Below are positions 3,230 to 64,000 of a DNA stretch of 64,000 nucleotides, one piece after another (the stretch's first letter is position 1; every line of letters begins with the position of its first letter). The stretch lies in assembly GCF_013409625.1 (NCBI RefSeq), contig NZ_JACCBF010000001.1:5459001-5523000 (forward strand), given 5' to 3'. Below the pieces are notes generated by a model. The model saw only the letters and a list, made by a program, of their open reading frames with translations. It had not been told where the DNA came from and ran no database searches. Position numbers and translations under genes: made by a program. The DNA comes from Nocardioides kongjuensis (GTDB taxonomy: Bacteria > Actinomycetota > Actinomycetes > Propionibacteriales > Nocardioidaceae).

Positions 3230-5679
3230 CCGCCACCCAGGAGCCCACCCGGGGCGAGATCGGCCGCGACCGCCGCCGCAAGGAGGACCAGCGCCTCATC
3301 ACCGGCCGCACCCGCTGGACCGACAACATCACGCTGCCGGGCATGCTGCACCTCGCGATGGTGCGCAGCCCGTTCCCGCACGCGCGGATCACCGGCATCA
3401 ACACCGCCGAGGCCAAGGCCAGCCCCAACGTGGTGGCGGTGTTCACCGGAGCGGACCTCGGGGAGGGCCAGGGTGCGTGCATCAACGCGTGGCCCGTCGT
3501 GCCCGACCAGGTCACCCCCGCCCACCTGCCGATGCCGACCGACCGGGTCGCCTTCGCCGGCGAGACGGTGGCGGTGGTGGTCGCCCGCAGCGCCGCCGAG
3601 GCCCGCGACGCCGCCGAGCTGGTCGAGGTCGACTACGAGGAGCTCCCGGCCGCGCTCGACCTCAAGGAGTCGGCCGAGGCCCACACCAACGGCGGCGCGC
3701 TCGCGCACCCCGACCTCGGCACCAACGTCAGCGCCGTGTGGCGCTTCGACTCGGCCGAGGCCGGCACCGGCGGCGACGTCGAGCAGGCGATCGCCGAGGC
3801 CCGCGAGAACGGCATCGTGATCGAGCGGGAGTACCGCCAGCAGCGGCTGATCCCCGCGTTCATGGAGCCGCGCAGCGTCGTCGTGGACCCGACCGGCGAG
3901 CAGATCACCGTCTGGTCGGCGACCCAGGTGCCCCACATCCTGCGCTTCGCGATCGCGGCCACGACCGGCGTACCCGAGTCGAAGATCCGGGTGATCGCGC
4001 CCGACGTCGGCGGTGGCTTCGGCGGCAAGCTGCAGCAGACGCCGGAGGAGATGATCGCCTTCGCGGTGGCCCGCAAGCTCGGCAAGCCGGTGAAGTTCAC
4101 CGAGACCCGCAGCGAGTCGCTGCTCACCGCCCACCACGGCCGCGACCAGTGGCAGCGGCTCACCCTCGCCGCGACCAAGGACGGTCACCTCACCGGCCTC
4201 AAGGTCGACCTGCTCGCCGACCTCGGGGCGTACGTCGCCATCGTCGGCGGCGGCGTGCCGGTGCTCGGGGCGTTCATGTTCAACGCGATCTACAAGTTCC
4301 CCGCCTACCAGTTCCAGACCACCAACGTCCTCACCAACAAGACCTGGACCGACGCCTACCGCGGCGCCGGCCGGCCCGAGGCGACGTTCGCGATCGAGCG
4401 GCTGATGGACGAGCTCGCGGCCGAGCTCGGCAAGGACCCGCTCGAGGTCCGCGAGATGAACTGGATCAAGCACGAGGAGTTCCCGTTCACCACGGTGGCC
4501 GGCCTCGAGTACGACTCCGGGAACTACGAGGCCGCCACCGCGCGCGCCAAGGAGATGTTCGGGTACGACGCGCTGCGCGCCGAGCAGGCCGAGCGCCGCG
4601 CCCGGGGCGACCGGGTCCAGCTCGGGCTCGGCGTGTCGACCTTCACCGAGATGTGCGGCCTCGCGCCGTCCCGGGTGCTCGGCAGCCTCAACTACGGCGC
4701 CGGCGGCTGGGAGCACGCCGAGGTCCGGATGCTCGCGACCGGCAAGGTCGAGGTCGTCACCGGGGCGTCCGCCCACGGTCAGGGCCACGAGACGGCGTTC
4801 AGCCAGATCGTGGCGGACCGGCTTGGCGTCCCGTTCGAGGACGTCGAGGTCCTGCACGGGGACACCCAGATCTCCCACAAGGGCCTGGACACCTACGGGT
4901 CCCGCAGCCTGGTCGTCGGCGGCGAGGCCCTGGTGCGGGCCGTCGACAAGGTGATCGAGAAGGCGCGGCCGGTCGCGGCCCACCTGCTCGAGGCCTCCGC
5001 CGACGACCTCGAGTTCAGCGACGGCCGGTTCACCGTCAGGGGAACCGACCAGGGGATGGCGATCACCGAGATCGCGACCGCCGTCTTCGCCGCGCACAAC
5101 CTCCCCGACGGTGTCGAGGCGTCGATCGACTCGGAGGCGACGTACGACCCCGTCAACTTCAACTACCCGCACGGCACCCACCTGTGCGCGGTCGAGGTCG
5201 ACACCGAGACCGGGCAGGTCCGGCTGCGCAAGTACGCCTGCTGCGACGACATCGGCAACGTCATCAACCCGCTCATCGTGTCGGGGCAGGTCCACGGCGG
5301 ACTGGTCCAGGGCATCGCCCAGGCGCTGTGGGAGGAGGCGGTCTACGACGACAACGGCACCCTCGTGACCGGGTCGTTCGTCGACTACCTGCTGCCCACC
5401 GCGGCCGACACGATCAGCTTCGAGCTCGACCACACCACCTCGCCGGCGACCACGAACTCGCTCGGCACCAAGGGCGTCGGCGAGGCCGGCACGATCGCGT
5501 CCACCCCCGCGGTGGTCAACGCGGTCGTCGACGCGCTGCGCCCCTACGGCGTCCACGACGTCGCGATGCCGTGCACGCCGGAACGGGTCTGGCGGGCCAT
5601 CAACAGCGGTGGGTCCGGGGGAGAGACGACCGAGGCCGCCGCACCCCACTTCGACGAGTCGGAAGGAGCAGCCCAGTGA
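3226..5679 (+). CDS. Molybdenum hydroxylase, Mo-binding large subunit (CoxL form II-like)
   Basis: The 817-residue large subunit carries the molybdopterin-cytosine-dinucleotide site. The active-site loop reads AYRGAGR (residues 377-383). That is the form II signature; genuine CO dehydrogenases have AYRCSFR. The C-terminal GVGEAG (750-755) supplies the catalytic glutamate, E753. The start is the ATG overlapping the stop of the 2Fe-2S gene. Form II enzymes hydroxylate assorted heterocycles or aldehydes, and most substrates are unknown. With a barbiturase-like gene 1.4 kb away, a purine or pyrimidine-type substrate such as uracil is a reasonable guess, but it is inference. Length and motifs are intact. 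Confidence 0.95.
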
Positions 5680-8953: not shown

Positions 8954-9993
8954 CGGCCCGCCCCGCTCCGGTCGCGCAGCACGAGCACGCCCTGCAGCAC
9001 CCACAGCAGCACGAGCCCGCCGAGGCCGACCCCGACGACGACGGTGCCGAGGTGGGGCCGGTCGAGCACCTGCACGAGCGGCGGCCGCTTGATCGGCTTG
9101 GCGTCGAGGCGGGCGATCGCGTCGATGACCGCCTTGGTGCTGCCGTCGGCGCCGAGCATGGAGAAGGTGCCGCCGGTGCTGGTGACCGCGCTGCGGAACT
9201 GCTCTGCCGCGTCGGGCCGTTCGGCCGTCGCCGGCGCGGCGATGCCGTGGACGACCACCTTCTTCTCGCGGGCGTACGCCGCCGCGTCGGGCACGCTGAA
9301 GATCCCCTTGCCGATCGGCTCGTTGTCGGAGGCCAGCACGATCGCGCGGCTGCGGTCCTCGTCGTTGCGGTCGAAGCGCTGCACGCACGAGGCCAGCCCG
9401 TCGCCCATCTGGGACTGGATGTCCCAGTCCAGCACGGTGCCGGCGGTGAAGACGGCGTACTCGTCGCTGTAGACGTCGCCCGACGCGAACGCCTTCTCCG
9501 CCGCGTTGAGCTGCTCGAGCACGTAGGTGTAGTCGTCGGTCAGCGGGAACACGGTGATCGCGGCGCCGCTCCAGATCGTCAGCCCGATCCGCTCACCGCG
9601 CAGGCCCGAGATGATCGCGCGGAACTCGCGCAGCACGTCGGCGTCGACCTCCGCCATCGAGCCGGACGCGTCCAGGCACAGCACGATGTCGCGGGTGCGG
9701 TCCTCCTGGGTCATCGTCTGCCGCTGCTGCAGCCGCCCGGCCAACACCACCGCCCCGGTGCAGGCCACCAGCGTGGCCAGGGTCAGGCAGGCGCCGAGCA
9801 CCACCTGGCGTCGCACGAGCGTGCGGTAGCGGGGGAGCGACTGCAGCCGTGCCGCGTGGGCGACGTACGACGCACCGGCGCGGCTCGGTCGCCGCCAGGG
9901 ACGCAGCCACACCACGAGCAGCAGGAGCACGAGCGCGCCGAGCAGCAGCGAGAGCCACGGCCACCGGAACCCGGTCGTGTCGGTGTCCCACAT
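8950..9993 (-). CDS. VWA-domain membrane protein (BatA-like)
   Basis: The 347-residue protein has two N-terminal membrane helices (residues about 10-30 and 65-87), a VWA domain with an intact metal-ion site DASGS, and a C-terminal helix before a basic end. The start at 9993 overlaps the upstream stop by one base (TGATG), which is why I prefer it to the ATG nine codons earlier. It has the classical metal site that its downstream neighbour lacks, so the pair may be functionally unequal. It sits in a MoxR/DUF58/DUF4381-like/VWA/VWA/TPR operon. Confidence 0.9.
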   Translation of the reverse strand: MWDTDTTGFRWPWLSLLLGALVLLLLVVWLRPWRRPSRAGASYVAHAARLQSLPRYRTLVRRQVVLGACLTLATLVACTGAVVLAGRLQQRQTMTQEDRTRDIVLCLDASGSMAEVDADVLREFRAIISGLRGERIGLTIWSGAAITVFPLTDDYTYVLEQLNAAEKAFASGDVYSDEYAVFTAGTVLDWDIQSQMGDGLASCVQRFDRNDEDRSRAIVLASDNEPIGKGIFSVPDAAAYAREKKVVVHGIAAPATAERPDAAEQFRSAVTSTGGTFSMLGADGSTKAVIDAIARLDAKPIKRPPLVQVLDRPHLGTVVVGVGLGGLVLLWVLQGVLVLRDRSGAGR

Positions 9994-10517
9994 CAGGCCG
10001 CGCTCCAGGCCGGGCTCCACGTGGCGACCAGGCCGCGCGCGCGATCGACGGCGGTGTCGAACAGGCCGTGGGCGAAGGTGCCGTCGGGGTCGTCGGGGGC
10101 GAACTCGGGCGGGTAGACCAGCTCAAGCACCTCGACCAGCGCGAACGGCGCCCGGTCGCGGAAGTCGGCCAGCGCCATGGTCCGCGCCGGAAGCGTGGTG
10201 ACCGCGGCGACGTAGTCGCGGACCACCTCGCTGAGCTGCTGGTGCCCGTCGCGGGCGCTGATCTCGCCCGCGCCGACCCGGGCCTCGATGTGGTCGATCC
10301 GGGCCAGGTGCTGCTGGCGCACGTCGGGCAGCGGGACGCCCGCACGCGCGAGGCCCACCGGTCGTGGCGGCCGGGTGAACCACCACGCGAGCAGGTAGTA
10401 GGCGACCAGCGCGACGGCGAGCCCGACGGCGATCCACAGCCAGCGGTCGGCGTACCCGACCGGTCCGGTGAACTCCTCGGGCAGGTCGACGGCCAGTGCC
10501 TCAACGCCGGCGCGCAT
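9993..10517 (-). CDS. Membrane protein at the DUF4381 position of the Bat-like operon
   Basis: This 174-residue protein has one strong membrane helix (WLWIAVGLAVALVAYYLLAWW, residues about 26-46) and a cytoplasmic part with helical segments (HLARIDHIEARVGAGEISARDG). That layout and its place between the DUF58 and VWA genes match the DUF4381-type protein of BatABCD-like operons. I read the start as the ATG at 10517, which lies inside the last codons of the DUF58 gene (17-base overlap). Sequence identity to DUF4381 cannot be checked here, so the call is mostly positional. Confidence 0.75.
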   Translation of the reverse strand: MRAGVEALAVDLPEEFTGPVGYADRWLWIAVGLAVALVAYYLLAWWFTRPPRPVGLARAGVPLPDVRQQHLARIDHIEARVGAGEISARDGHQQLSEVVRDYVAAVTTLPARTMALADFRDRAPFALVEVLELVYPPEFAPDDPDGTFAHGLFDTAVDRARGLVATWSPAWSAA

Positions 10518-11391
10518 GGCGGTGCCTCTCGAGGAGCCGGAAGACGGCGGTGATCGCGGAGTCGTGGTCGCGGACCAGCTCGTGGGCGATGCCCAGCTGG
10601 TCGAGGCGGCGGCGCATCCGCTGGCCCTCCTCGTCGACGAGGGCGGCGAACTCCGCACGCAGCCGGGCGTCGCGCCGCAGCCAGCCGGGCACCTCGGCGT
10701 CGGCGTCGACGTCGACGAGGCGTCGGTCGGCGACGCTGCGCTGGGTGGGGTCGAGGTCGCCGACGGTCAAGAAGAGCACCTCGTGCTGCGCGGTCAGCCG
10801 GCGCAGCAGCATCGTGGACTCGTCGGAGAGGGTCACGTCGTCGGTGACGACGACGAGGATGGTGCGCCGGCGGACGGTGCGCACGACGTGGCGCAGCAGG
10901 CCCGGCAGGTCGCCGTGGGGCCCGTCGGGGGTGATCGCGTCGTGGACGGTGCCGAGCAGCCGCTCGAGGTGCAGCTCGCCGGCGGCCGGGCGTTCGACGT
11001 GGTGGCGCTCCTCGTCGCCGTGGACCAGCGCGACCAGGTCGCCGTGCTGGACGGCGAGGTAGCCGATCACGCCGGCGACCAGCACGGTGAGCTCGCGCTT
11101 GGCGACCGCGGCGTCGTTGAGCGCGGCCATGCTGCGGCCGGTCGAGACGCACAGCAGCACGGTGTGCTTGCGCTCGGCGACGTACCTCTTGACCAGCAGC
11201 TGGCGGCTGCGCGCCGAGGCCTTCCAGTCGATGTCCTTCACGTCGTCCCCGCGGACGTACTCGCGCAGGTCGTTGAAGTCGATCCCGCGCCCGACGTGGA
11301 TCGCGGCGTACTCGCCCTCGAGCAGGCCCCACACCTTGCGGTGGGCGTGGATGGCCAGCCGTGACTTGATCCGCGTCAGGTGGGCCGTCAC
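10501..11391 (-). CDS. DUF58 domain-containing protein
   Basis: The 296-residue protein shows the DUF58 core: EGEYAAIHVGRGIDFNDLREY and GDDVKDIDWKASARS (residues about 26-63). A VWA-like region follows, with TGRSMAA where the metal-ion motif would be. DUF58 proteins are encoded next to MoxR ATPases almost everywhere. The start is a GTG seven bases after the MoxR stop, so the two are coupled. The family is secure. Its role, probably as a client or adaptor of MoxR in building membrane or secreted complexes, is family-level knowledge only. Confidence 0.92.
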   Translation of the reverse strand: MTAHLTRIKSRLAIHAHRKVWGLLEGEYAAIHVGRGIDFNDLREYVRGDDVKDIDWKASARSRQLLVKRYVAERKHTVLLCVSTGRSMAALNDAAVAKRELTVLVAGVIGYLAVQHGDLVALVHGDEERHHVERPAAGELHLERLLGTVHDAITPDGPHGDLPGLLRHVVRTVRRRTILVVVTDDVTLSDESTMLLRRLTAQHEVLFLTVGDLDPTQRSVADRRLVDVDADAEVPGWLRRDARLRAEFAALVDEEGQRMRRRLDQLGIAHELVRDHDSAITAVFRLLERHRHARRR

Positions 11392-32652: not shown

Positions 32653-32699
32653 GGGCGGACCGTACTGAGTGGATCCGACAGAACCTGTCGGACCGGTGG

Positions 32700-32772
32700 A
32701 GCCGCGTGTCGGAATCGAACCGACGACATTCGCTTTACAAGAGCGACACTCTGCCAACTGAGTTAACGCGGC
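32700..32772 (-). tRNA. tRNA-Thr (anticodon TGT)
   Basis: Read on the minus strand, a seven-base acceptor stem (GCCGCGT pairs ACGCGGC), D arm, a five-base anticodon stem with loop CTTGTAA (anticodon TGT), variable loop ATGTC and T arm with TTCGATT form a full cloverleaf of 73 bases. CCA is not encoded. TGT reads ACA, a rare codon here. Confidence 0.95.
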
Positions 32773-39738: not shown

Positions 39739-41179
39739 ACGCGAACGACCCGGTGACCGGCTCGGGGACAGGTCTGGCCAGCCGGTCGAGGAAGGCCACC
39801 AGCACGGCCTCCCGCAGCGCCGGCGGCGCGACGTCGAGCAGCGCGTTGACCGGAGCCATCCGCTCGGGCAGCCCGAGCGCACCGTCGTCACCGGCCAGGC
39901 CGCCCGCCGCCAGCAGCAGGTCGAGCTCGGCGTCGCCGAGGCTCGCCGGGTCGAGGGTGCGCAGCAGCTCGGCCACCCCCGCGTCGACCGGCACCGGTCC
40001 GGCGGCCCGCGCGGCCTCCACGGAGGAGCCGAGCGCGGCCAGGAAGGCCGTCGCGTCGGTGGCCGCGCTGATCGCGACGTGCAGGGACGGCGCCCGGTCG
40101 CCGTAGGACAGCTGGGGCTGGACGAACCACCCGCGCGCCGCCATCTCGTCGCACACGGTGAACACGTCGAGGTCCGCGTCGGCGGTCGCGGCGACCAGCG
40201 TCGACTCGGGAGTGGCCACCAGCGAGAGGCCCGGCAGGGCGGCGATCCCCGCCGCGATGGCGTCCGTGGCGCACAGCGCCTGCTCGGCCAGCCGGAGGTA
40301 CCCGTCGTCGCCGATCGCCCGCACCGTCGCCCACGCCCCGGCCGTCGGGCCGCCCGAGCGCGTGGACTGCAAGGTGGCGTTGAGCATCGTGTAGCCCGGC
40401 CAGCCCGCGTGGGCGAAGTACTGCGGCCGGCGCAGCGCGGGGTCGCGGTGCAGCAGGAGCGAGGCGCCCTTGGGTGCGTAGGCGTACTTGTGCAGGTCGG
40501 TCGAGATCGAGGTGACGCCCTCGACGGCGAACGTCCAGGGCGTGACCGGCCGGCCCAGCCGGGCGGCGTACGGCAGCACCCAGCCGCCGATGCACGCGTC
40601 GACGTGGCAGCGCACGCCCCGGGCCGCAGCGGCCGCGGCGATCTCGGGGACCGGGTCGACCACCCCGTCGGCGTACGACGGCGCGCTCGCCACCACCAGC
40701 ACCGTGCTGTCGTCGATGGCGGCCGCCACGGCCGCCGGGTCCGCGCGGTGGTCGGGGCCGGTCGGCACCACGACCACCCGGACGCCGAAGTAGTGCCCGG
40801 CCTTGTGGAAGGCGGCGTGCACCGTGTCGGGTACGACGATCGACGGGTCGCGGACGTCGGGTCGCGAGTCCCGCGCACCCTGCACCGCGAGCAGGCAGGA
40901 CTCCGTGCCGCCGGAGGTCAGCGTGCCGACCATCGTCGCGGGGCCGTCGACCAGCGAGCGGGCGAAGGCCACCAGGTCGTTCTCCATCGCCAGCAGGCTC
41001 GGGAACGCCGTCGGGTCCAGGCCGTTGCTGCCGGCAAACGCGGCCACCGCCTCGCGGGCCAGGGCGTCGACCTCGGCCAGCCCGGCGTCGTAGACGTAGG
41101 CGAGGGTGCGCCCGCCGTGCACCGGCAGGTCGTCCTCCTGCAGTGCGGCCAGCCGGGCGCGGATGTCCTCAGGCGTCAA
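39728..41179 (-). CDS. Group II PLP-dependent decarboxylase / sphingosine-1-phosphate-lyase-like
   Basis: The 483-residue enzyme has the fold-type I PLP motifs: GTLTSGGTESCLLAVQGAR (phosphate loop), HVDACIGGWVLP (Asp on the ring nitrogen) and STDLHKYAYAPKGAS with the PLP lysine. It resembles glutamate decarboxylase and S1P lyase relatives. The start is taken as a TTG at 41179, eight bases after AGGGAGG and overlapping the transporter stop by 11 bases; a GTG 12 codons upstream is possible. The coupled MFS gene suggests the substrate or product is transported. Confidence 0.85.
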   Translation of the reverse strand: MTPEDIRARLAALQEDDLPVHGGRTLAYVYDAGLAEVDALAREAVAAFAGSNGLDPTAFPSLLAMENDLVAFARSLVDGPATMVGTLTSGGTESCLLAVQGARDSRPDVRDPSIVVPDTVHAAFHKAGHYFGVRVVVVPTGPDHRADPAAVAAAIDDSTVLVVASAPSYADGVVDPVPEIAAAAAARGVRCHVDACIGGWVLPYAARLGRPVTPWTFAVEGVTSISTDLHKYAYAPKGASLLLHRDPALRRPQYFAHAGWPGYTMLNATLQSTRSGGPTAGAWATVRAIGDDGYLRLAEQALCATDAIAAGIAALPGLSLVATPESTLVAATADADLDVFTVCDEMAARGWFVQPQLSYGDRAPSLHVAISAATDATAFLAALGSSVEAARAAGPVPVDAGVAELLRTLDPASLGDAELDLLLAAGGLAGDDGALGLPERMAPVNALLDVAPPALREAVLVAFLDRLARPVPEPVTGSFASGT

Positions 41180-58316: not shown

Positions 58317-58341
58317 GTCCCTCCGCTTCACCTGTTTCACA

Positions 58342-58375
58342 CCACAGGGCCCTCGCTTCGGCGGGGGCCCTGTGG
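58342..58375 (+). terminator. groEL terminator with UUCG tetraloop
   Basis: An 11-base perfect outer stem (CCACAGGGCCC with GGGCCCTGTGG) continues inward with three more pairs and one wobble around a C-TTCG-G tetraloop. It starts 25 bases after the groEL stop. Confidence 0.85.
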
Positions 58376-58417
58376 CATTAGTTCGACAGCGCCGACCGGC
58401 CGTCCCATGATGGAGAC

Positions 58418-58615
58418 ATGGTCGTGCCGGACTGGATCGGTCGCGCCCTCGGACGCCGACAACAGCGCGCGAGGCTCGCGGCGAGGAAGGTCGCCCGGGA
58501 ACGGGCGGCGGTGCAGGGCGCCGAGCGCTGGGCACAGGAGTCGCACGGTGAGCTGCCGGTCGTGCCGAGCCAGGGGGACCTGATCTGCTTCAACGCGGCG
58601 ATACATCCCTGCTGA
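58418..58615 (+). CDS. Small basic hypothetical protein (doubtful)
   Basis: A 65-residue frame (MVVPDWIGRALGRRQQRARL at the start) follows the groEL terminator. CATGAT lies six bases before its ATG and TTCGAC 18 bases further up, a leaderless-type promoter. The product is Arg/Ala-rich and helical, and I know no family. It could be real or chance in GC-rich sequence. Confidence 0.35.
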   Translation: MVVPDWIGRALGRRQQRARLAARKVARERAAVQGAERWAQESHGELPVVPSQGDLICFNAAIHPC

Positions 58616-58779
58616 TCGCCAGCGAAGGCGGGTCAGCCGGCCAGAGAGTCCACGACTCGACCTCGCTGACGGACCGCCAAGTCGTGGCTGCGCGTCGGGT
58701 GCGAAGCGGCTGCTGCACAGGCGCCGTGTGCGGGCCGGCAACTAGCCGTATCGCGGCGAAAGGACACGGGCGCACGACG

Positions 58780-58794
58780 AGATCACGAGTGATC
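58780..58794 (+). repeat. Left copy of an imperfect direct repeat flanking the low-GC module
   Basis: AGATCACGAGTGATC here and AGATCGCGGGTGATC at 61208-61222 match at 13 of 15 bases and flank the three-gene module on both sides. They may be attachment-site remnants; chance is also possible. Confidence 0.35.
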
Positions 58795-58803
58795 GCGGGC
58801 AGG

Positions 58804-59286
58804 TCAACGACCGCTGGAGTCGAAGCCAGGAACGAAGGAGAGATCCTGGCCAGGTAGAGACAGGAGGAGTTCGTCGTCGAGGTCGATCTTGAACTCGGCT
58901 GCAAGCGCGACGATCTCTTCGCCGACCGAAGTTCGTAGCGCCTCGAGACAGGCCGCAAAGAATGCGAAGTCCTGCTGGAACTTTGACGAGTGCGCACCAG
59001 CTGCGGTCACAAAATCTCGCGCGGCCTTCCGCATCCGCTTGAAGGATGCTTCAAGGGTGCCGCCATGCTTGACGTTCGGAATTTCGAGGTTGAGAAGGTC
59101 GCGCATCTTCTCCGCTGACAGCCTGCAGAACTCGGGGTCTTCGCGTCGATGGCCATCCGTCAGCAGGCGCATGTCCTCGAATCGGGTGAGCACTCGGCGC
59201 ACAACGTCCTTGTTCGACTGGACGTACTCAACGTCAAGCGACACTCCCAGCAGTCCGATGCCAGTCAACCGAATCGGGATGCCCAT
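58804..59286 (-). CDS. Hypothetical protein, third gene of the low-GC module (DUF6650-like)
   Basis: The 160-residue protein starts with a Gly-rich strand (IRLTGIGLLGVSLDVEY), then helices with LTRFEDMRLL and RMRKAARDFVTAAG, and ends LRTSVGEEIVALAAEFKIDL with DDELLLSLPG. The order of these blocks resembles the small DUF6650-type hypotheticals as I remember them; this needs a profile search. It lies directly after the PIN gene, with TGA and ATG touching (TGAATG), so it is translated together. A role as an antitoxin or third component is inference. GC is lower than in neighbours. Confidence 0.72.
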   Translation of the reverse strand: MGIPIRLTGIGLLGVSLDVEYVQSNKDVVRRVLTRFEDMRLLTDGHRREDPEFCRLSAEKMRDLLNLEIPNVKHGGTLEASFKRMRKAARDFVTAAGAHSSKFQQDFAFFAACLEALRTSVGEEIVALAAEFKIDLDDELLLSLPGQDLSFVPGFDSSGR

Positions 59287-59781
59287 TCAAATCTCCTGTC
59301 GAGCGGAATCTGTATCGGAAGGTACTTGTGTTCGGCCGGCGGCGTGGGAGAGTTGCTCTGCGAGGTCCGCCGCACTCAACCACGCGACCTGATGGCGCTC
59401 GCAGGCTTCGCGGACTGGGATGTCAGCGGTGACGACTGTGTAGACCTCGCCGATGAGAGACTCGCTAAGCCGTTGGGCGCCGTCGAGGGCGCATGCGATA
59501 AGGAGCGGGTCGGCGCAGCCTTCGCCGGCGTACAGGTCGATGAGTTCGAAGTCGTCTGCCGGCACCCGGCCCATCACCTCCTTGAGGTGTTCGAGAACCG
59601 AGGGCGTCGTCTTGTACTCAAGCGGGGTCAAGTCGTAACGGTCTGCGTAGATGCCGGCTTCGTGGATGACTTCCGACGGGAACCGGGCCACCTCGCGGAG
59701 AAGCGTGGACGTCCGGACGTCTTGCGGCATTTGGAATAGCGCGTTGTTGTCCACGAGGTAGCGATCGAAGTCGATGCTCAT
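59287..59781 (-). CDS. PIN-like nuclease, second gene of the low-GC module
   Basis: The 164-residue protein shows the PIN-domain pattern of acidic residues: D11 in YLVDNNALF, E41 in VIHEAG, D91 in CADPLLIACALD, and D120 in VVTADIPVREACE. PIN domains are Mg-dependent RNases and form the toxins of many toxin-antitoxin pairs. It overlaps the stop of the ImmA/IrrE-like gene by ATGA and touches the next gene, so the three are coupled. It is not a standard VapC and is longer. It could be the effector of the module. Confidence 0.82.
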   Translation of the reverse strand: MSIDFDRYLVDNNALFQMPQDVRTSTLLREVARFPSEVIHEAGIYADRYDLTPLEYKTTPSVLEHLKEVMGRVPADDFELIDLYAGEGCADPLLIACALDGAQRLSESLIGEVYTVVTADIPVREACERHQVAWLSAADLAEQLSHAAGRTQVPSDTDSARQEI

Positions 59782-60980
59782 GCCGTGGCCGCCAAGTCCC
59801 GGACCTCTGAGGTGCTCAGATGGTTGAGGCAGACGCTGCGGCGAAACTCGCCGACATCCAGTCGTCCCGAGCCAAGTTGGATGACCATCCGGCTGAAATA
59901 TTCAGGGCCGCAATACCGCATGACCGCGTTGATCGGTTTGGCTTTCTGTGCCGGCTTCTTCTCCCGTTGCAGATATACGCGCTCAAGTTCGGCAAGCCAA
60001 GCATCGGTGGTCTCGCGGTCAATTAGGTCGAGTTTCCATGCTCGCATCACGAAGGCCGACGGCGTGACTTTGTAGGCCGTTGCGTGCTGCCGCGCGGCGT
60101 CGAGGCTAGGTACGGAGACCTTCTTCAGTTCGGCTCGTGGCATGAGAACTTCGCCCGCGACTTCGTACTCGCGCTTGATGGCGCCGTTGCCGGTCTTGTC
60201 CTCGAACGTAACGGGGGCGAATGTGCCGTAGCCGACGAGGGCCGCGAGCAGCACCATGGTGAAGATCTTGCGTCCAGCCGGTTCGAAGTCTCCTTCATCA
60301 CCAGAAGCGAGGAACAGGTACGGAATCTTGTTGTCCTTCACCGCGAGCCCCGAGAACTTGATGCCTTGCGGGACACGCTGCAGCATGTAGCCGGGCTGGT
60401 TACGGGACACGAACAACTGGTGGGCTTCGAAGCAGTTGATCAGGAACTCGAATGCCCGCTCTTTCGTGCCGTTCGCGTGCAACTCATCGAGAGTGAACCC
60501 AAGCGCTGAGCGCAGGATGTTCGCATCCTCCACCGGGGTCCGTTTGGTCTTGGCAGGCTTGCCCAAGCATCCGACGACCTGGTTCTTCGCCATGTTCGGT
60601 TCGAGGCGCTTGAGGTGTTCCTGTTTGCGGAGGAGGTCCTTGACGATCAACTCGACGTCGGCAAGCTGCACCTCGTGTCGTGAGTTCATCGAGAACGCTT
60701 GCTTGGACGTGCCTTTGAGCAGCAGATTGGTCTTCCGTTGAACCTGGGATCGGATGTTCTCGACGGGGGCGAAGAACAGGGTCCACGGGATGTCAGCTGC
60801 GCGGGCGTGGGCGACGAGGTCGGCCCAATTGATGAATCCGTCCTCGCGGGCGTGTCGAATATCGGCATACCCGCGACGGTGGGAGTTGTCGAAAAGCAGG
60901 TCGAATCCAGTCCTAGAAATGGGGACGGTTTGACCGTTGAGCTTGACGAGCAGTTCGTCGCTGGCGTCGGGGTGGGACAT
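59778..60980 (-). CDS. ImmA/IrrE-like protein with a lost metal site, first gene of the low-GC module
   Basis: The 400-residue protein has an N-terminal region like XRE/IrrE partners (GYADIRHAREDGFINWADLV, residues 38-56), and residues 209-285 follow the ImmA/IrrE metalloprotease pattern: SGLAVKDNKIPYLFLAS, FTMVLLAALVGYG where FTLaHELgH is expected, and VLMPRAEL. The HExxH is replaced by LLAAL (244-248), so no zinc site is visible. It may be a regulator or substrate-binding pseudoprotease. It is the first gene of an operon with a PIN nuclease. The start at 60980 follows neither a clear ribosome site nor a TANNNT element. Confidence 0.8.
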   Translation of the reverse strand: MSHPDASDELLVKLNGQTVPISRTGFDLLFDNSHRRGYADIRHAREDGFINWADLVAHARAADIPWTLFFAPVENIRSQVQRKTNLLLKGTSKQAFSMNSRHEVQLADVELIVKDLLRKQEHLKRLEPNMAKNQVVGCLGKPAKTKRTPVEDANILRSALGFTLDELHANGTKERAFEFLINCFEAHQLFVSRNQPGYMLQRVPQGIKFSGLAVKDNKIPYLFLASGDEGDFEPAGRKIFTMVLLAALVGYGTFAPVTFEDKTGNGAIKREYEVAGEVLMPRAELKKVSVPSLDAARQHATAYKVTPSAFVMRAWKLDLIDRETTDAWLAELERVYLQREKKPAQKAKPINAVMRYCGPEYFSRMVIQLGSGRLDVGEFRRSVCLNHLSTSEVRDLAATA

Positions 60981-61424
60981 CGCTGGGCCTGTTGTAGGTG
61001 ACGGTGTTCGCCGATCCTCGCGAACAAGTCCCCGCGAGGGTCTGTCCGCGTTCCGGCTCAAACATGTAATCACTGCTCCCTGCCATCTGTGTCAGGTTTC
61101 TTCAAATGGGTGCGTGAACCGCGGACGGGACGCTTCGGCCAGGGCTCGCGCCAGCTCAGGCGCCGGCATCGGTCCGGCTGGGGGGCGGAGGGTGCTGCGC
61201 GGCGTAGAGATCGCGGGTGATCAAGGATTCTGAAGAACTACTTGGCACCGCGAGCCACTGGCCACGGACCGGTCAATACGTGTCTGGCGGCCCTCGATTC
61301 AAGACGCGTCGCACGTTCCGGTCCGGGTCCTTCTGGGCAGAATGACCGAGGAGGCCCAGCCCACCAAGTCACCGGTTCGCTGTCCGGCCGACTCATCCCG
61401 GGCGCGCCAGAGCCCCGGCGTCGC
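60981..61424. other. Non-coding stretch upstream of the ImmA/IrrE-like gene
   Basis: No convincing gene is visible. It holds CTCGCG-N10-CGCGAG (61017-61022 with 61033-61038), a possible operator about 40 bases before the module's first gene; a weak promoter-like CTGACA/TTACAT pair on the minus strand; and the right copy of the imperfect direct repeat (61208-61222). GC rises back to the local norm in the right half, so the acquired segment probably ends here. Confidence 0.4.
61208..61222 (+). repeat. Right copy of the imperfect direct repeat
   Basis: AGATCGCGGGTGATC, partner of 58780-58794, in the same orientation. Confidence 0.35.
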
Positions 61425-62903
61425 TCAGGCTGAGACGGGAGCGGCGTGGACCAGGTCGACGGGTGGGTCGGGGTAGCACTCGCCGAGCACCGTGCCGTCG
61501 CGGGCTCGAAGCAGCTCGACGCGGATCGTGCCGCGTGGGGTGACGATGCGGGCGAGGCCGTGGGGCGTGATCCAGCGGTAGGCGGTAAGGCCGAGCTGGC
61601 GCACCTGGTAGCCGCCTCCGCCGTCGGGGAGGTGGCCGTGGGTCTTGATCCGATGGTGTCTTCGGGTCAGGGGAGCGGCGTTGTGGTCGCCGGTCTGGTC
61701 GGGTGGGCCGCCGCGCACGGGAGGGACGTAGGGAGTGGGGTGGTCGAGGTCGAAGTGCCCGCCGACGCCGGGCGCGTTGGTGGAGTGGGGGAACACGTCA
61801 CCGCACATCCGCTGGAGGGCGCGCTCACGGACGATGGTGGGGTGCTCGTAGGCGTTCACGCTCGTGACACCGGCGAGGTCCAGCACGGGTTGCACGGTGA
61901 CGTCGTGGCGGCCGAGGAGCTCGGCGAGCTGCTCGCGCAGGAACGGGCCGAGCCCTTCGACCCGGGCGACGCCGGGAAGGACGCCGGTGAGCGCCAGAGC
62001 CGAGACGTGTACGTGGATGACTGCCTTGCGGCGTCGGGCGGGCTTCTTCCTGGGCGGCTCGGGTGAGGGGCTGTCGTCGGCCCCGCCGTCGAGGCCGTCG
62101 AGGAACCGTGCGGCGGCGTGCGGGTCGGAGAGGAGCGCGAGCGCCTGGGCACGCAGCTGGGCCCGCGTCGGGGGCTCCTCGTCCGAGGCGCGGTCGTGGT
62201 GCGCCTCGAGGGCATCGGCGAGGTCGTCGATGACGGAATCCAGCTGGACCGCGGCACCGGCGGGCAGCTTCGCGGCGAACCGGCGGGTGGCGGCCTCGCC
62301 GCCGCCGAGGCGGTCGATGATGTCGCCGGGACGCGGCTTGGAGAGCCAGCACCCGGTCTTCTGGGCGTCCGCGGCGACCCGGGCCTGGTGGGCCGCCAGG
62401 TCGGCCTCGATCACCTTCGCCTCGGCGATCCGCAGGATCCGGCCCGGGGACTCCTGCACCGCGGCAGCGACGGCGGCATCGACCAGGCGCACCGCGTCGC
62501 GGTCGAGCTCCCGGGACAGCACGGCGACCTTGCGCGCGAGCCAGACCGGCATCCGCAGGTCGAGCACCAGGCTCCACACCGCCGGCAACCGGTGGCGCAG
62601 GTCCAGCGCGGCCGCGGCGAGGTTGTGCGTGCTGACGTAGCCGGACTGGAAGGCGATGGCCAGCTCACCGAGGCACAGCTCGGCGACCAGCGGTGTGCCG
62701 TCGCCGCCGAGCCGGACCAATCGGTCCCCGCCCCGCGACACCGGTGCGGCGCCGGGGGCGGACTGGGGGTCGTTGCCGTTGCGGTCGCACCACGCCAGCG
62801 CCAGCAGGAGCTGGTCGACCTCGGCCTGGCGCCGCTCACGCACGTTGGCCTCGGCGCGCGCCAGCAGCTCTGCCGCTGCCAGCTCGCCCAGGTCCAGGTC
62901 CAT
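61425..62903 (-). CDS. DUF222/HNH endonuclease family protein (13E12-type)
   Basis: The 492-residue protein has an N-terminal DUF222 region (helical; RMPVWLARKVAVLSREL) and a C-terminal HNH motif (HFDLDHPTPYVPP, then HNAAPLTRRHHRIKTHG). These 13E12-type proteins are multicopy in actinobacteria and may be mobile or toxin-like; the role is unknown. The ATG at 62903 is preferred to a GTG two codons earlier. It is monocistronic and lies next to the acquired three-gene module. Confidence 0.85.
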   Translation of the reverse strand: MDLDLGELAAAELLARAEANVRERRQAEVDQLLLALAWCDRNGNDPQSAPGAAPVSRGGDRLVRLGGDGTPLVAELCLGELAIAFQSGYVSTHNLAAAALDLRHRLPAVWSLVLDLRMPVWLARKVAVLSRELDRDAVRLVDAAVAAAVQESPGRILRIAEAKVIEADLAAHQARVAADAQKTGCWLSKPRPGDIIDRLGGGEAATRRFAAKLPAGAAVQLDSVIDDLADALEAHHDRASDEEPPTRAQLRAQALALLSDPHAAARFLDGLDGGADDSPSPEPPRKKPARRRKAVIHVHVSALALTGVLPGVARVEGLGPFLREQLAELLGRHDVTVQPVLDLAGVTSVNAYEHPTIVRERALQRMCGDVFPHSTNAPGVGGHFDLDHPTPYVPPVRGGPPDQTGDHNAAPLTRRHHRIKTHGHLPDGGGGYQVRQLGLTAYRWITPHGLARIVTPRGTIRVELLRARDGTVLGECYPDPPVDLVHAAPVSA

Positions 62904-63076
62904 GCCCACAGTCGATCACGCACCCCCGACACAAACCGGCTCATCCCCATCAAGGGTGTAGGTGGGCGCCCGCGGGCCCATGCGCAGGGGGCGTGGTCCA
63001 TCGCCGGCCGCGGCATCGCCGACCTGCAGTACCGACGGACAGCCTGACCGACCCGGCGCATCGCGGATCGGGTAGG

Positions 63077-63488
63077 TCAGCTGCCCCCAGCGATGTTGAC
63101 CAGCCACGAGGTCCCGAACCGGTCGACGCACATCCCGAACTCGTCGCCCCACGGCTGGGTGGCCATCTCGACCGTCACGGTCCCTCCGTCCGACAGCGCC
63201 TGCCAGTAGCCGCGCATTTCCTCGGTGTCGTCCCCGCCGAGGCTGACCGCGAAGTTGTTTCCCGGGCCGCAACGTCTCGCCCGGCAGCATGTCGGCGGCC
63301 ATCAGCGTGAGGCCAGACGCTGTTTCCAGCTGGCCGTGCATGACCTGGTCGCCTATGCCGTGGTCGTCGGTGCCGAAGTCGCCGAAGTGGTTGATCGTGA
63401 GATCGCCGCCGAAGACGTCCTGGTAGAACGCCAGCGCGGCCGAGGCATCACCCGCGAAGCTGAGGTAGGGGTTCAGTCGAGTGGTCAT
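63077..63488 (-). pseudogene. PhnB-like VOC gene with a frameshift
   Basis: The first 76 residues read as a PhnB-like VOC protein (MTTRLNPYLSFAGDASAALA, MHGQLETASGLTLMAAD). After GPG in GGG-AAA-CAA the frame changes, and the expected rest (NNFAVSLGGDD, then WGDEFGMCVDRFGTSWLVN and a stop at 63077) lies one base off. Removing one A of the GGGAAA run (63258-63260) restores a 136-residue protein of normal length. It is either a recent inactivation or a sequencing error in a homopolymer. Confidence 0.8.
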
Positions 63489-63810
63489 GGACCGACGATA
63501 GAGGGCTCATTTCAATCGAGCGTGTCGGAGTTGGGGTCTGAAGCCGCCGGTCTCGAGCAGCGATCTGGCGGTGTGGTTGGTCAGGTTGCGAAACCGAGCG
63601 GCGGGTTGGCGTCGGGCGCGTCGGGGTCTTCCGGATGGCGAGCGTGTGAACCTCCATCTTCGGGAGGTCTCGACTCCTACCCGCTCAACGACAGCGCCAC
63701 CGAACCCACAGCGCTGCATCCTCATCTGGAGAGCCCACAAGCCCGGCCGATGCGGTAGGCATGAGGTGCGGCTCGATCCGCCGTGAAGCGATGTCCGGGA
63801 GGAGCACGTC
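63489..63810. other. Unexplained stretch before the cupin gene
   Basis: No gene is convincing here. The minus strand is open from about 63893 to 63507 and ends in a conserved-looking tail (RNLTNHTARSLLETGGF and on); it might be the end of a decayed mobile element or a repeated sequence, which I cannot confirm. The first ~40 bases and the middle are lower in GC than flanking genes. Confidence 0.3.
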
Positions 63811-64000
63811 ATGGAGTCGACGAACCTGACCGCGCTGGCGGACAGCCAGCTCGAGGCCGCCCGGGCCGCGAGCAGCGGACGTGCCTCCGTCACCGTGTAC
63901 GGCGGCCGCGAGCACCGGCTGCGGCAGACCTTGATCGCGCTGCGGGCGGGGGAGCGCCTGGGTGAGCACGATGCTCCCGAGGAGGCGACGCTGCAGGTGG
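63811..64000 (+). CDS. Cupin-domain protein, N-terminal fragment (cut by window edge)
   Basis: The first 63 residues are present. They start MESTNLTALADSQLEAARAA and include YGGREHRLRQTLIALRAGERLGEH, followed by the EATLQV strand of a cupin barrel. The ATG follows GGGAGGAG. Similar small cupins of actinobacteria are uncharacterised; metal ligands would lie further on, outside the window. Confidence 0.7.
   Translation, partial: MESTNLTALADSQLEAARAASSGRASVTVYGGREHRLRQTLIALRAGERLGEHDAPEEATLQV

What the first reader, a model, noticed from the sequence alone, without database searches (positions are those of the whole stretch)
58780..61222. Acquired three-gene module: pseudo-ImmA/IrrE, PIN nuclease and a small hypothetical
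Three genes on the minus strand are joined as tightly as possible: ATGA between the first two, TGAATG between the next two. The first looks like an ImmA/IrrE metalloprotease whose HExxH is LLAAL; the second has PIN-type acidic residues; the third is a small conserved-looking protein (DUF6650-like, from memory). The GC is lower: bases 60601-60660 contain 35 G+C of 60 (58 percent), against 48 of 60 at 40621-40680. Imperfect direct repeats flank it. Toxin plus regulator operons of this kind often serve in defence or addiction, and I know no described system with this exact set.
Basis: partly seen in the sequence, partly recalled or inferred. Interest (0 to 1): 0.8.

Follow-up and report, generated by a model that had tools for sequence, protein, structure and literature searches.

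The report
Toxin–antitoxin pair with inactive protease
A soil actinobacterium carries what looks like an acquired toxin–antitoxin pair, a PIN-type RNA-cutting enzyme beside an antitoxin descended from a protease that has lost its cutting site, joined here to a third small gene whose relatives often sit beside other bacterial defence genes.

Summary
The three genes and both tight junctions are real. Gene 1 (59778-60980) is an ImmA/IrrE relative without HExxH; the loss is family-wide (0 of 176 readable rows have it), not private decay. Gene 2 (59287-59781) is a PIN protein with its acidic quartet intact. Genes 1+2 are a conserved unit, mainly in Actinomycetota: 54 of 57 gene-1 loci have the PIN gene next door, 47 of 54 with an ATGA-type overlap. 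The closest studied relative is VapBC52, whose IrrE-type antitoxin cuts itself when ssDNA binds. This clade lacks the zinc motif and largely lacks the FR motif near the cut site, so toxin release should work another way. Gene 3 (58804-59286, DUF6650-like) is not part of the unit: no DUF6650 gene was found in those 57 loci, and only 1 of 215 genus genomes has genes 1 and 3. Elsewhere DUF6650 adjoins or is fused to DarT1–NADAR, TIR/SEFIR, SIR2, NYN, HNH or AAA genes in 6 of 13 loci, and it was recently implicated in phage defence. The trio looks like a recent joining of two acquired defence-type parts in a variable spot after groEL. Flanking repeats are chance. Toxicity, neutralisation and defence are inferred.

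The parts
59778..60980 (-). gA: pseudo-ImmA/IrrE antitoxin candidate, 400 aa
   Evidence: 10 of 20 aligned family members match PF06114 at E<=0.1, best 1.8e-5; gA itself does not. Profile-profile match to 25 HExxH-bearing M78 proteins, prob 98.6, 287 columns
60237..60251 (-). LLAAL (gA residues 244-248) in the place of HExxH
   Evidence: 178 family rows, 176 with letters here: no H or E at any of residues 243-249. HELGH falls on this stretch in the profile alignment, with a one-residue gap
59287..59781 (-). gB: PIN-domain toxin candidate, 164 aa; acidic residues D11, E41, D91, D120
59778..59781 (-). ATGA overlap of gA stop and gB start
   Evidence: sequence; an in-frame gB start 3 bases before gA's end also in 47 of 54 relatives
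59290..59331 (-). gB C-terminal extension (residues 151-164) running up to gC
   Evidence: gB 164 aa against 147-150 aa in its six closest aligned relatives, though 2 of all 26 are longer (166, 183 aa); pLDDT about 60-65 there
59284..59289 (-). TGAATG junction of gB and gC
   Evidence: sequence
58804..59286 (-). gC: DUF6650-like protein, 160 aa, predicted helical
   Evidence: PF20355 24.1 bits, E 3.7e-5, cut-off 27; AlphaFold2 pLDDT 72.2, helices only
58317..64000 (.). variable spot after groEL that holds the module; it runs on to about 64146, just past the window's end, where a block conserved in relatives begins
   Evidence: module not found after groEL in 9 of 9 relatives examined; the downstream block recovered in 8 of 9, with gaps of about 0.7-5.9 kb

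Best explanation
gA-gB is a toxin–antitoxin pair of the IrrE/ImmA–PIN kind, the kind of VapBC52 and of ImmA-based RosmerTA. gB is a PIN ribonuclease toxin, probably aimed at tRNA. gA is a pseudo-protease antitoxin that holds gB by direct binding and is translated first from the same message, with gB coupled to it. In VapBC52 the IrrE domain is activated by ssDNA and the antitoxin cuts itself, which is thought to free the toxin. gA has no zinc motif and no FR motif at the corresponding junction, so it should be a non-cleaving inhibitor whose release depends on turnover by host proteases, on a phage protein or on another partner; infection would then unleash gB and stop growth (abortive infection). 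gC, a DUF6650 protein, is an independently moving defence-type part joined behind the pair in this lineage, either an added sensor/adaptor or a second defence gene using the pair's promoter. Shown by sequence: families, motif losses, conservation of the pair, lack of gC elsewhere, foreign composition. Inferred: toxicity, neutralisation, target, trigger, phage defence and the role of gC.
For: Pair conserved: 54 of 57 loci, 47 of 54 with ATGA-type overlap. No H or E at the motif in 176 of 176 readable rows, although the profile matches HExxH-bearing M78 proteins. FR at residues 60-110 in 1 of 178 gA rows; FR in one alignment column in 13 of 25 HExxH proteins. PIN fold and intact quartet. VapBC52: zinc-motif mutant antitoxin still binds the toxin, ssDNA-triggered self-cleavage, tRNA cleavage, phage resistance. 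NetFlax: ImmA antitoxin node associated with PIN-like domains; a RosmerTA shown antiphage. DUF6650 implicated in defence; a neighbour or fusion matching a defence model at E<=1e-8 in 6 of 13 other DUF6650 loci, against 1 of 60 background ORFs. Low GC and variable spot.
Against: No functional data. gB and gC match no PADLOC model and gA only RmrA at E 3.5e-4. Queries gA and gC found nothing in phages or plasmids and alignments of gA, gB, gC nothing in viral contigs; other DUF6650 branches do occur on plasmids (9 records; 10 records). A tyrosine recombinase lies within 6 kb in only 6 of 42 fully flanked gA-gB loci. gA itself has no Pfam M78 hit and no sequence match to a solved ImmA/IrrE structure. 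The FR comparison is only suggestive: 10 of 25 HExxH proteins lack FR in the 60-160 aa before their motif, and over a wider stretch (60-185 aa before LLAxL) 14 of 178 gA rows do have FR.
Confidence: 0.6

Rival explanations
1. The pair is a selfish addiction or stress-response toxin–antitoxin module without a defence role; gC is an unrelated gene that landed behind it.
For: Patchy presence: 16 of 215 genus genomes match gA, nine of them above 500 bits (three of these nine with a stop inside the match), the rest split, partial or weak. Module not found in the spot in 9 of 9 relatives. No PADLOC match of gB or gC. No DUF6650 in the 57 pair loci.
Against: Studied relatives give phage resistance; DUF6650 is tied to defence.
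Confidence: 0.25
2. All three genes act as one tripartite system in this lineage, gC being the trigger or a second neutraliser in place of the lost ssDNA-activated self-cleavage of gA.
For: TGAATG junction; all three genes share low GC (59.8, 62.2, 59.2%). DUF6650 also lies behind other toxin operons, e.g. DarT1-NADAR with an 8-base gap, and overlaps SIR2 and AAA genes.
Against: Pairs occur without a detectable DUF6650 gene in all 57 other loci; gB has a 14-residue tail suggesting a recent joint; the five closest gC relatives, 66-77% identical, share no longest-contig length with a listed gA or gB relative (120 of 207 gA relatives were listed).
Confidence: 0.15
3. gA is a transcription regulator only, and gB acts alone as an RNA-processing enzyme rather than a toxin.
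For: ImmA/IrrE proteins are often regulators or antirepressors (PMC2701414, passages read). PIN proteins also do housekeeping work: Foldseek hits include RNase P and exosome PIN domains.
Against: Pair overlap in 47 of 54 loci, patchy distribution and VapC toxins among the top fold matches.
Confidence: 0.08

Closest known systems
VapBC52 (Rv2514c-Rv2515c) of Mycobacterium tuberculosis, PMC13273310 (abstract and passages read)
   Same: PIN toxin paired with a large IrrE-type antitoxin (residues numbered to 415; gA has 400); a zinc-motif mutant of the antitoxin still binds the toxin
   Different: VapB52 has a zinc-bound HEXXH and a conserved FR motif at the N-terminal junction and cuts itself with ssDNA; gA has neither motif. 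No DUF6650 gene is mentioned in the passages read. No direct sequence comparison with VapB52 was made here
RosmerTA (RmrA/RmrT), PMC10440598 (abstract and passages read)
   Same: ImmA-domain antitoxin next to varied toxins; the ImmA node is also associated with PIN-like domains; a RosmerTA was shown antiphage
   Different: PADLOC RmrA matches gA only at E 3.5e-4 over residues 272-369; the validated Kita phage toxin depolarises membranes
COG2856-PIN operons predicted by Makarova et al. 2009, PMC2701414 (passages read)
   Same: COG2856 protein in a predicted operon with a PIN toxin (60 cases listed under COG2856 in their table)
   Different: They describe COG2856 as carrying a conserved HEXXH; this clade lacks it
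DUF6650 (PF20355), named among validated systems in DefensePredictor, PMC13092281 (sections 5 and 7 and passages read)
   Same: gC is a divergent DUF6650 protein
   Different: The gene content of the validated E. coli system is not in the text read; supplementary files could not be opened

Membership tests
IrrE/ImmA-PIN toxin–antitoxin pairs (COG2856-PIN) | Tight two-gene operon of an ImmA/IrrE-type gene and a PIN gene | tested here: met
   54 of 57 loci; start-stop overlap in 47 of 54
IrrE/ImmA-PIN toxin–antitoxin pairs (COG2856-PIN) | ImmA/IrrE homology of the antitoxin | tested here: met
   hhalign prob 98.6, 287 columns; PF06114 in 10 of 20 members at E<=0.1, gA itself none
IrrE/ImmA-PIN toxin–antitoxin pairs (COG2856-PIN) | HExxH zinc motif | tested here: not met
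   no H or E at residues 243-249 in 176 of 176 rows with letters
IrrE/ImmA-PIN toxin–antitoxin pairs (COG2856-PIN) | Toxin neutralised by the antitoxin | not testable with these tools
   needs expression in a laboratory host
PIN-domain nucleases (VapC-like) | PIN fold with the acidic quartet | tested here: met
DUF4411 (PF14367) | Match to the Pfam model | tested here: inconclusive
   5 of 27 members at E<=1, best E 6.8e-4, gB itself none; PIN_4 in 11 of 27
VapBC52-like | FR motif between N-terminal and peptidase domains | tested here: not met
   FR at residues 60-110 in 1 of 178 rows
VapBC52-like | ssDNA-activated self-cleavage of the antitoxin | not testable with these tools
   expected absent from the motif losses
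RosmerTA | RmrA and RmrT models matched | tested here: inconclusive
   gA to RmrA E 3.5e-4; gB no match
DUF6650 (PF20355) | Match over the curated cut-off | tested here: inconclusive
   24.1 bits against 27; precomputed PF20355.5 for this protein and P0153-P0157; aligns over its length with canonical members

The most novel reading that the evidence does not exclude
A whole actinobacterial clade of IrrE-type antitoxins has given up ssDNA-triggered self-cleavage, losing protease site and cleavage motif together, and waits for a separate trigger; in this genome that trigger is supplied by a DUF6650 protein, a general plug-in partner that bacteria attach to many different defence effectors (PIN, DarT1, TIR, SIR2, NYN, HNH, AAA).
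Probability: 0.15. Interest if true: 0.75.

Novelty: new variant of a known kind. Interest (0 to 1): 0.5.

Why it matters
VapBC52 gave a clear model of how an IrrE-type antitoxin senses trouble: ssDNA switches on its protease and it cuts itself. A clade of similar layout without the protease motif suggests that neutralisation and triggering can be separated, and offers a natural case to ask what the trigger is then. Separately, DUF6650 emerges as a recurrent small neighbour of very different toxin and defence genes; its role is unknown, and the short list of neighbours makes it testable.

Tried and rejected
Flanking repeats as insertion marks: rejected, 180 of 1000 shuffles reach the score. 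tRNA-linked insertion: the only tRNA gene found in the window is at 32697-32772. Carriage by phages or plasmids: queries gA and gC found nothing in phages or plasmids, alignments A1, A2, A3 nothing in viral contigs, two single DUF6650 proteins nothing in viral contigs and a canonical one nothing in phages; canonical DUF6650 does occur on plasmids. gA as a private pseudogene: rejected, the loss is family-wide. A distant DUF6650 gene behind the other pairs: none with the broader A4 model. Fold of gC: no PDB match at E<=0.001, best 0.33 (cytochrome c'-type bundle), so no fold is claimed. The BamE hit of gA (E 0.015, below cut-off) is judged chance. E. coli genomes with a Mesorhizobium DUF6650 gene as query: no match. 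Papers on an inactive ImmA/IrrE antitoxin: none recognised in the listings; this is no proof of absence (in one search the term also hit unrelated words, and 20 of 62 papers were listed).

Rows dropped before counting DUF6650 neighbours: G829 (fragment on a 3.7-kb contig), G785 (broken in two frames), G788 and G489 (weak matches, judged false), three further Sinorhizobium medicae plasmids with the same match, one partial Novosphingobium match. Fourteen loci were kept, the window included; the G013 copy (L086) and the G879 copy (L146) were flagged with a stop inside. Not all neighbours were put to PADLOC: none of L132 and L084, one of two for L187, one of two for L086. Background set: 60 of 69 ORFs; the nine left out are groEL copies.
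Full report
What is in the sequence. Three minus-strand genes lie at 59778-60980 (gA, 400 aa), 59287-59781 (gB, 164 aa) and 58804-59286 (gC, 160 aa), joined by ATGA and TGAATG. The segment 58804-60981 has 60.3% GC against a mean of 72.6% (sd 1.7, minimum 68.4%) in 116 other windows of the same length. In 200-base steps the change is sharp at the low end (0.69 to 0.59 at 58801) and more gradual at the high end (0.64-0.67 over 61001-61400, then 0.74). GC3 of the three genes is 0.71-0.76, against 0.95 in groEL and 0.92 in the flanking gene at 61425-62909.

Where it sits. The host's genus is inferred as Nocardioides: same-genus genomes include contigs whose lengths equal those of named Nocardioides records (N. 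kribbensis 436100 bases; JS614 plasmid 307814 bases). From the 20 genomes, the stretch after groEL was taken for 9 relatives. The module was not found there in 9 of 9. In 8 of 9 the block that starts at about window position 64147 follows groEL at a distance of about 0.7 to 5.9 kb; in the ninth (G042) it was not found within the stretch taken. The module therefore lies in a variable spot.

gA. Pfam gives no M78 hit for gA itself, but 10 of 20 aligned family members match PF06114 at E<=0.1, best 1.8e-5. From a search of 57 genomes of the order, 25 of 30 fetched loci gave an ORF with HExxH, and these were picked for that motif. Their profile aligns with the gA profile over 287 columns at probability 98.6, HELGH falling, with a one-residue gap, on the stretch that reads LLAAL in gA. 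In an alignment of 178 rows (the window, 120 of the 207 database proteins, and 57 loci) 176 have letters there and none has H or E at residues 243-249. The rows include duplicates and related sequences, so this is not 176 independent events; the loss is a clade character, not decay of one gene.

The pair is a unit. A scan of genome contigs with the gA alignment gave 57 loci; by record title 55 are Actinomycetota, one a Candidatus Taylorbacteria MAG and one an uncultured bacterium. A gB model hits in 54 of 57, a few of them visibly broken (L005, L049). The three misses are a frame-broken gA (L052), a contig end (L057) and a truncated gA (L058). In 47 of 54 an in-frame gB start codon lies 3 bases before the end of gA, the overlap seen in the window. 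In the genus 16 of 215 genomes match gA: nine above 500 bits, three of these with a stop inside the match, the others split, partial or weak.

gC is a different matter. It matches DUF6650 just under the cut-off. Its close model hits none of the 57 gA loci, nor does a broader DUF6650 model, within the stretches held. In the genus 4 of 215 genomes match gC and 16 of 215 match gA; only the window's genome is in both lists. Five close gC relatives, 66-77% identical, are in the protein database; the longest-contig lengths given for them do not recur among the 120 listed gA relatives (of 207) or the 30 other gB relatives. This is a weak test, as one contig length is given per cluster. gB in the window is 14-17 residues longer than its six closest aligned relatives and the tail runs to the gC start (low pLDDT), although 2 of all 26 relatives are longer still. 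I read this as a recent joint.

DUF6650 elsewhere. Fourteen loci were inspected, the window included; rows dropped are listed under Tried and rejected. On the same strand and fused, overlapping or within 100 bases, the following were recognised: PIN (window); DarT1 and NADAR (L135, 8-base gap); a TIR gene of PDC-S35 type upstream and a SEFIR gene downstream (L134, where the DUF6650 match is in two pieces); NYN (L137, 68 bases); an HNH-type nuclease region fused in front of DUF6650 (L138; no Pfam hit, PADLOC E 4.3e-21); an AAA_23 ATPase overlapping its likely start (L147); and a SIR2 protein overlapping by 4 bases (L186). That is 7 of 14. Of the rest, L132 overlaps an integrase, L146 has a ResIII helicase on the other strand, L187 has a Gp49/HTH pair on the other strand, and L084, L086, L133 and L136 have no recognised neighbour among those scanned. 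At PADLOC E<=1e-8, 6 of 13 loci other than the window have such a neighbour or fusion, against 1 of 60 background ORFs from groEL neighbourhoods. The control is rough: different genomes, different selection, and not every DUF6650 neighbour was scanned. DefensePredictor names DUF6650 among five DUFs newly implicated in defence within 42 validated E. coli systems; the partner genes are not in the text that I could read.

How it most likely works. VapBC52 is the guide (abstract and passages read). There a PIN toxin, which cleaves tRNA and gives phage resistance in M. smegmatis, is held by an antitoxin with N-terminal, IrrE-peptidase and C-terminal domains; ssDNA activates self-cleavage that releases the N-terminal domain, a conserved FR motif being the probable cut site, while a zinc-motif mutant still binds the toxin. 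gA has a similar length. FR falls in one alignment column in 13 of 25 HExxH proteins and occurs at gA residues 60-110 in 1 of 178 rows. Against that, 10 of the 25 HExxH proteins lack FR in the 60-160 aa before their motif, and 14 of 178 gA rows have an FR somewhere in the wider stretch 60-185 aa before LLAxL, so the co-loss is suggestive only. The inference is that gA neutralises gB by binding, cannot free it by cutting itself, and needs another trigger. gC may or may not be part of that trigger here.

Against this reading: no functional data; weak or no matches to named defence models; tyrosine recombinases near only 6 of 42 fully flanked gA-gB loci; nothing found for gA or gC in phages or plasmids or for any of the three in viral contigs.

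Verdict. A new variant of a known kind (IrrE/ImmA–PIN toxin–antitoxin), with two points of interest: a clade-wide loss of the protease motif in the antitoxin, and a third gene from a family that turns up beside many unlike defence effectors. Within the collections searched, the exact trio was found in this genome only.

Noticed in passing
window 62916-63488 (-): ORF starts like a PhnB/VOC-type protein (recalled, not scanned) but its second half looks out of frame: possible pseudogene or sequence error.
   Followed up: no
window 61425-62909 (-): 494-aa protein that looks like a DUF222/HNH '13E12 repeat' gene (recalled; no NCBIfam match; not scanned with Pfam) directly beside the module.
   Followed up: no
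L002 1858-11821: In Nocardioides kribbensis the gA-gB pair lies between two tyrosine-recombinase genes, with a CBS-plus-HEPN-looking gene (3751-4800) and a nucleotidyltransferase-looking gene (9731-10795), both recognised by eye: perhaps a defence island.
   Followed up: partly
G099:C1:4238111-4240809 (L128): gA copy split into two pieces about 1.5 kb apart, as by an insertion.
   Followed up: no
L127 3260-9160: A relative has 5.9 kb of other sequence, including a 967-aa ORF, in the same spot after groEL: the spot seems to collect accessory genes.
   Followed up: no
L138 3542-6042: HNH-like/DUF6650 fusion followed by an HNH-like/AAA protein on a Rhizobium hidalgonense plasmid: perhaps an undescribed nuclease/ATPase pair.
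   Followed up: partly
L186 2665-5493: SIR2 and DUF6650 genes overlapping by 4 bases next to a phage integrase gene: candidate two-gene NADase defence system.
   Followed up: partly
L056: A relative of the gA-gB pair in a Candidatus Taylorbacteria MAG, gA 30% identical, also without HExxH.
   Followed up: partly
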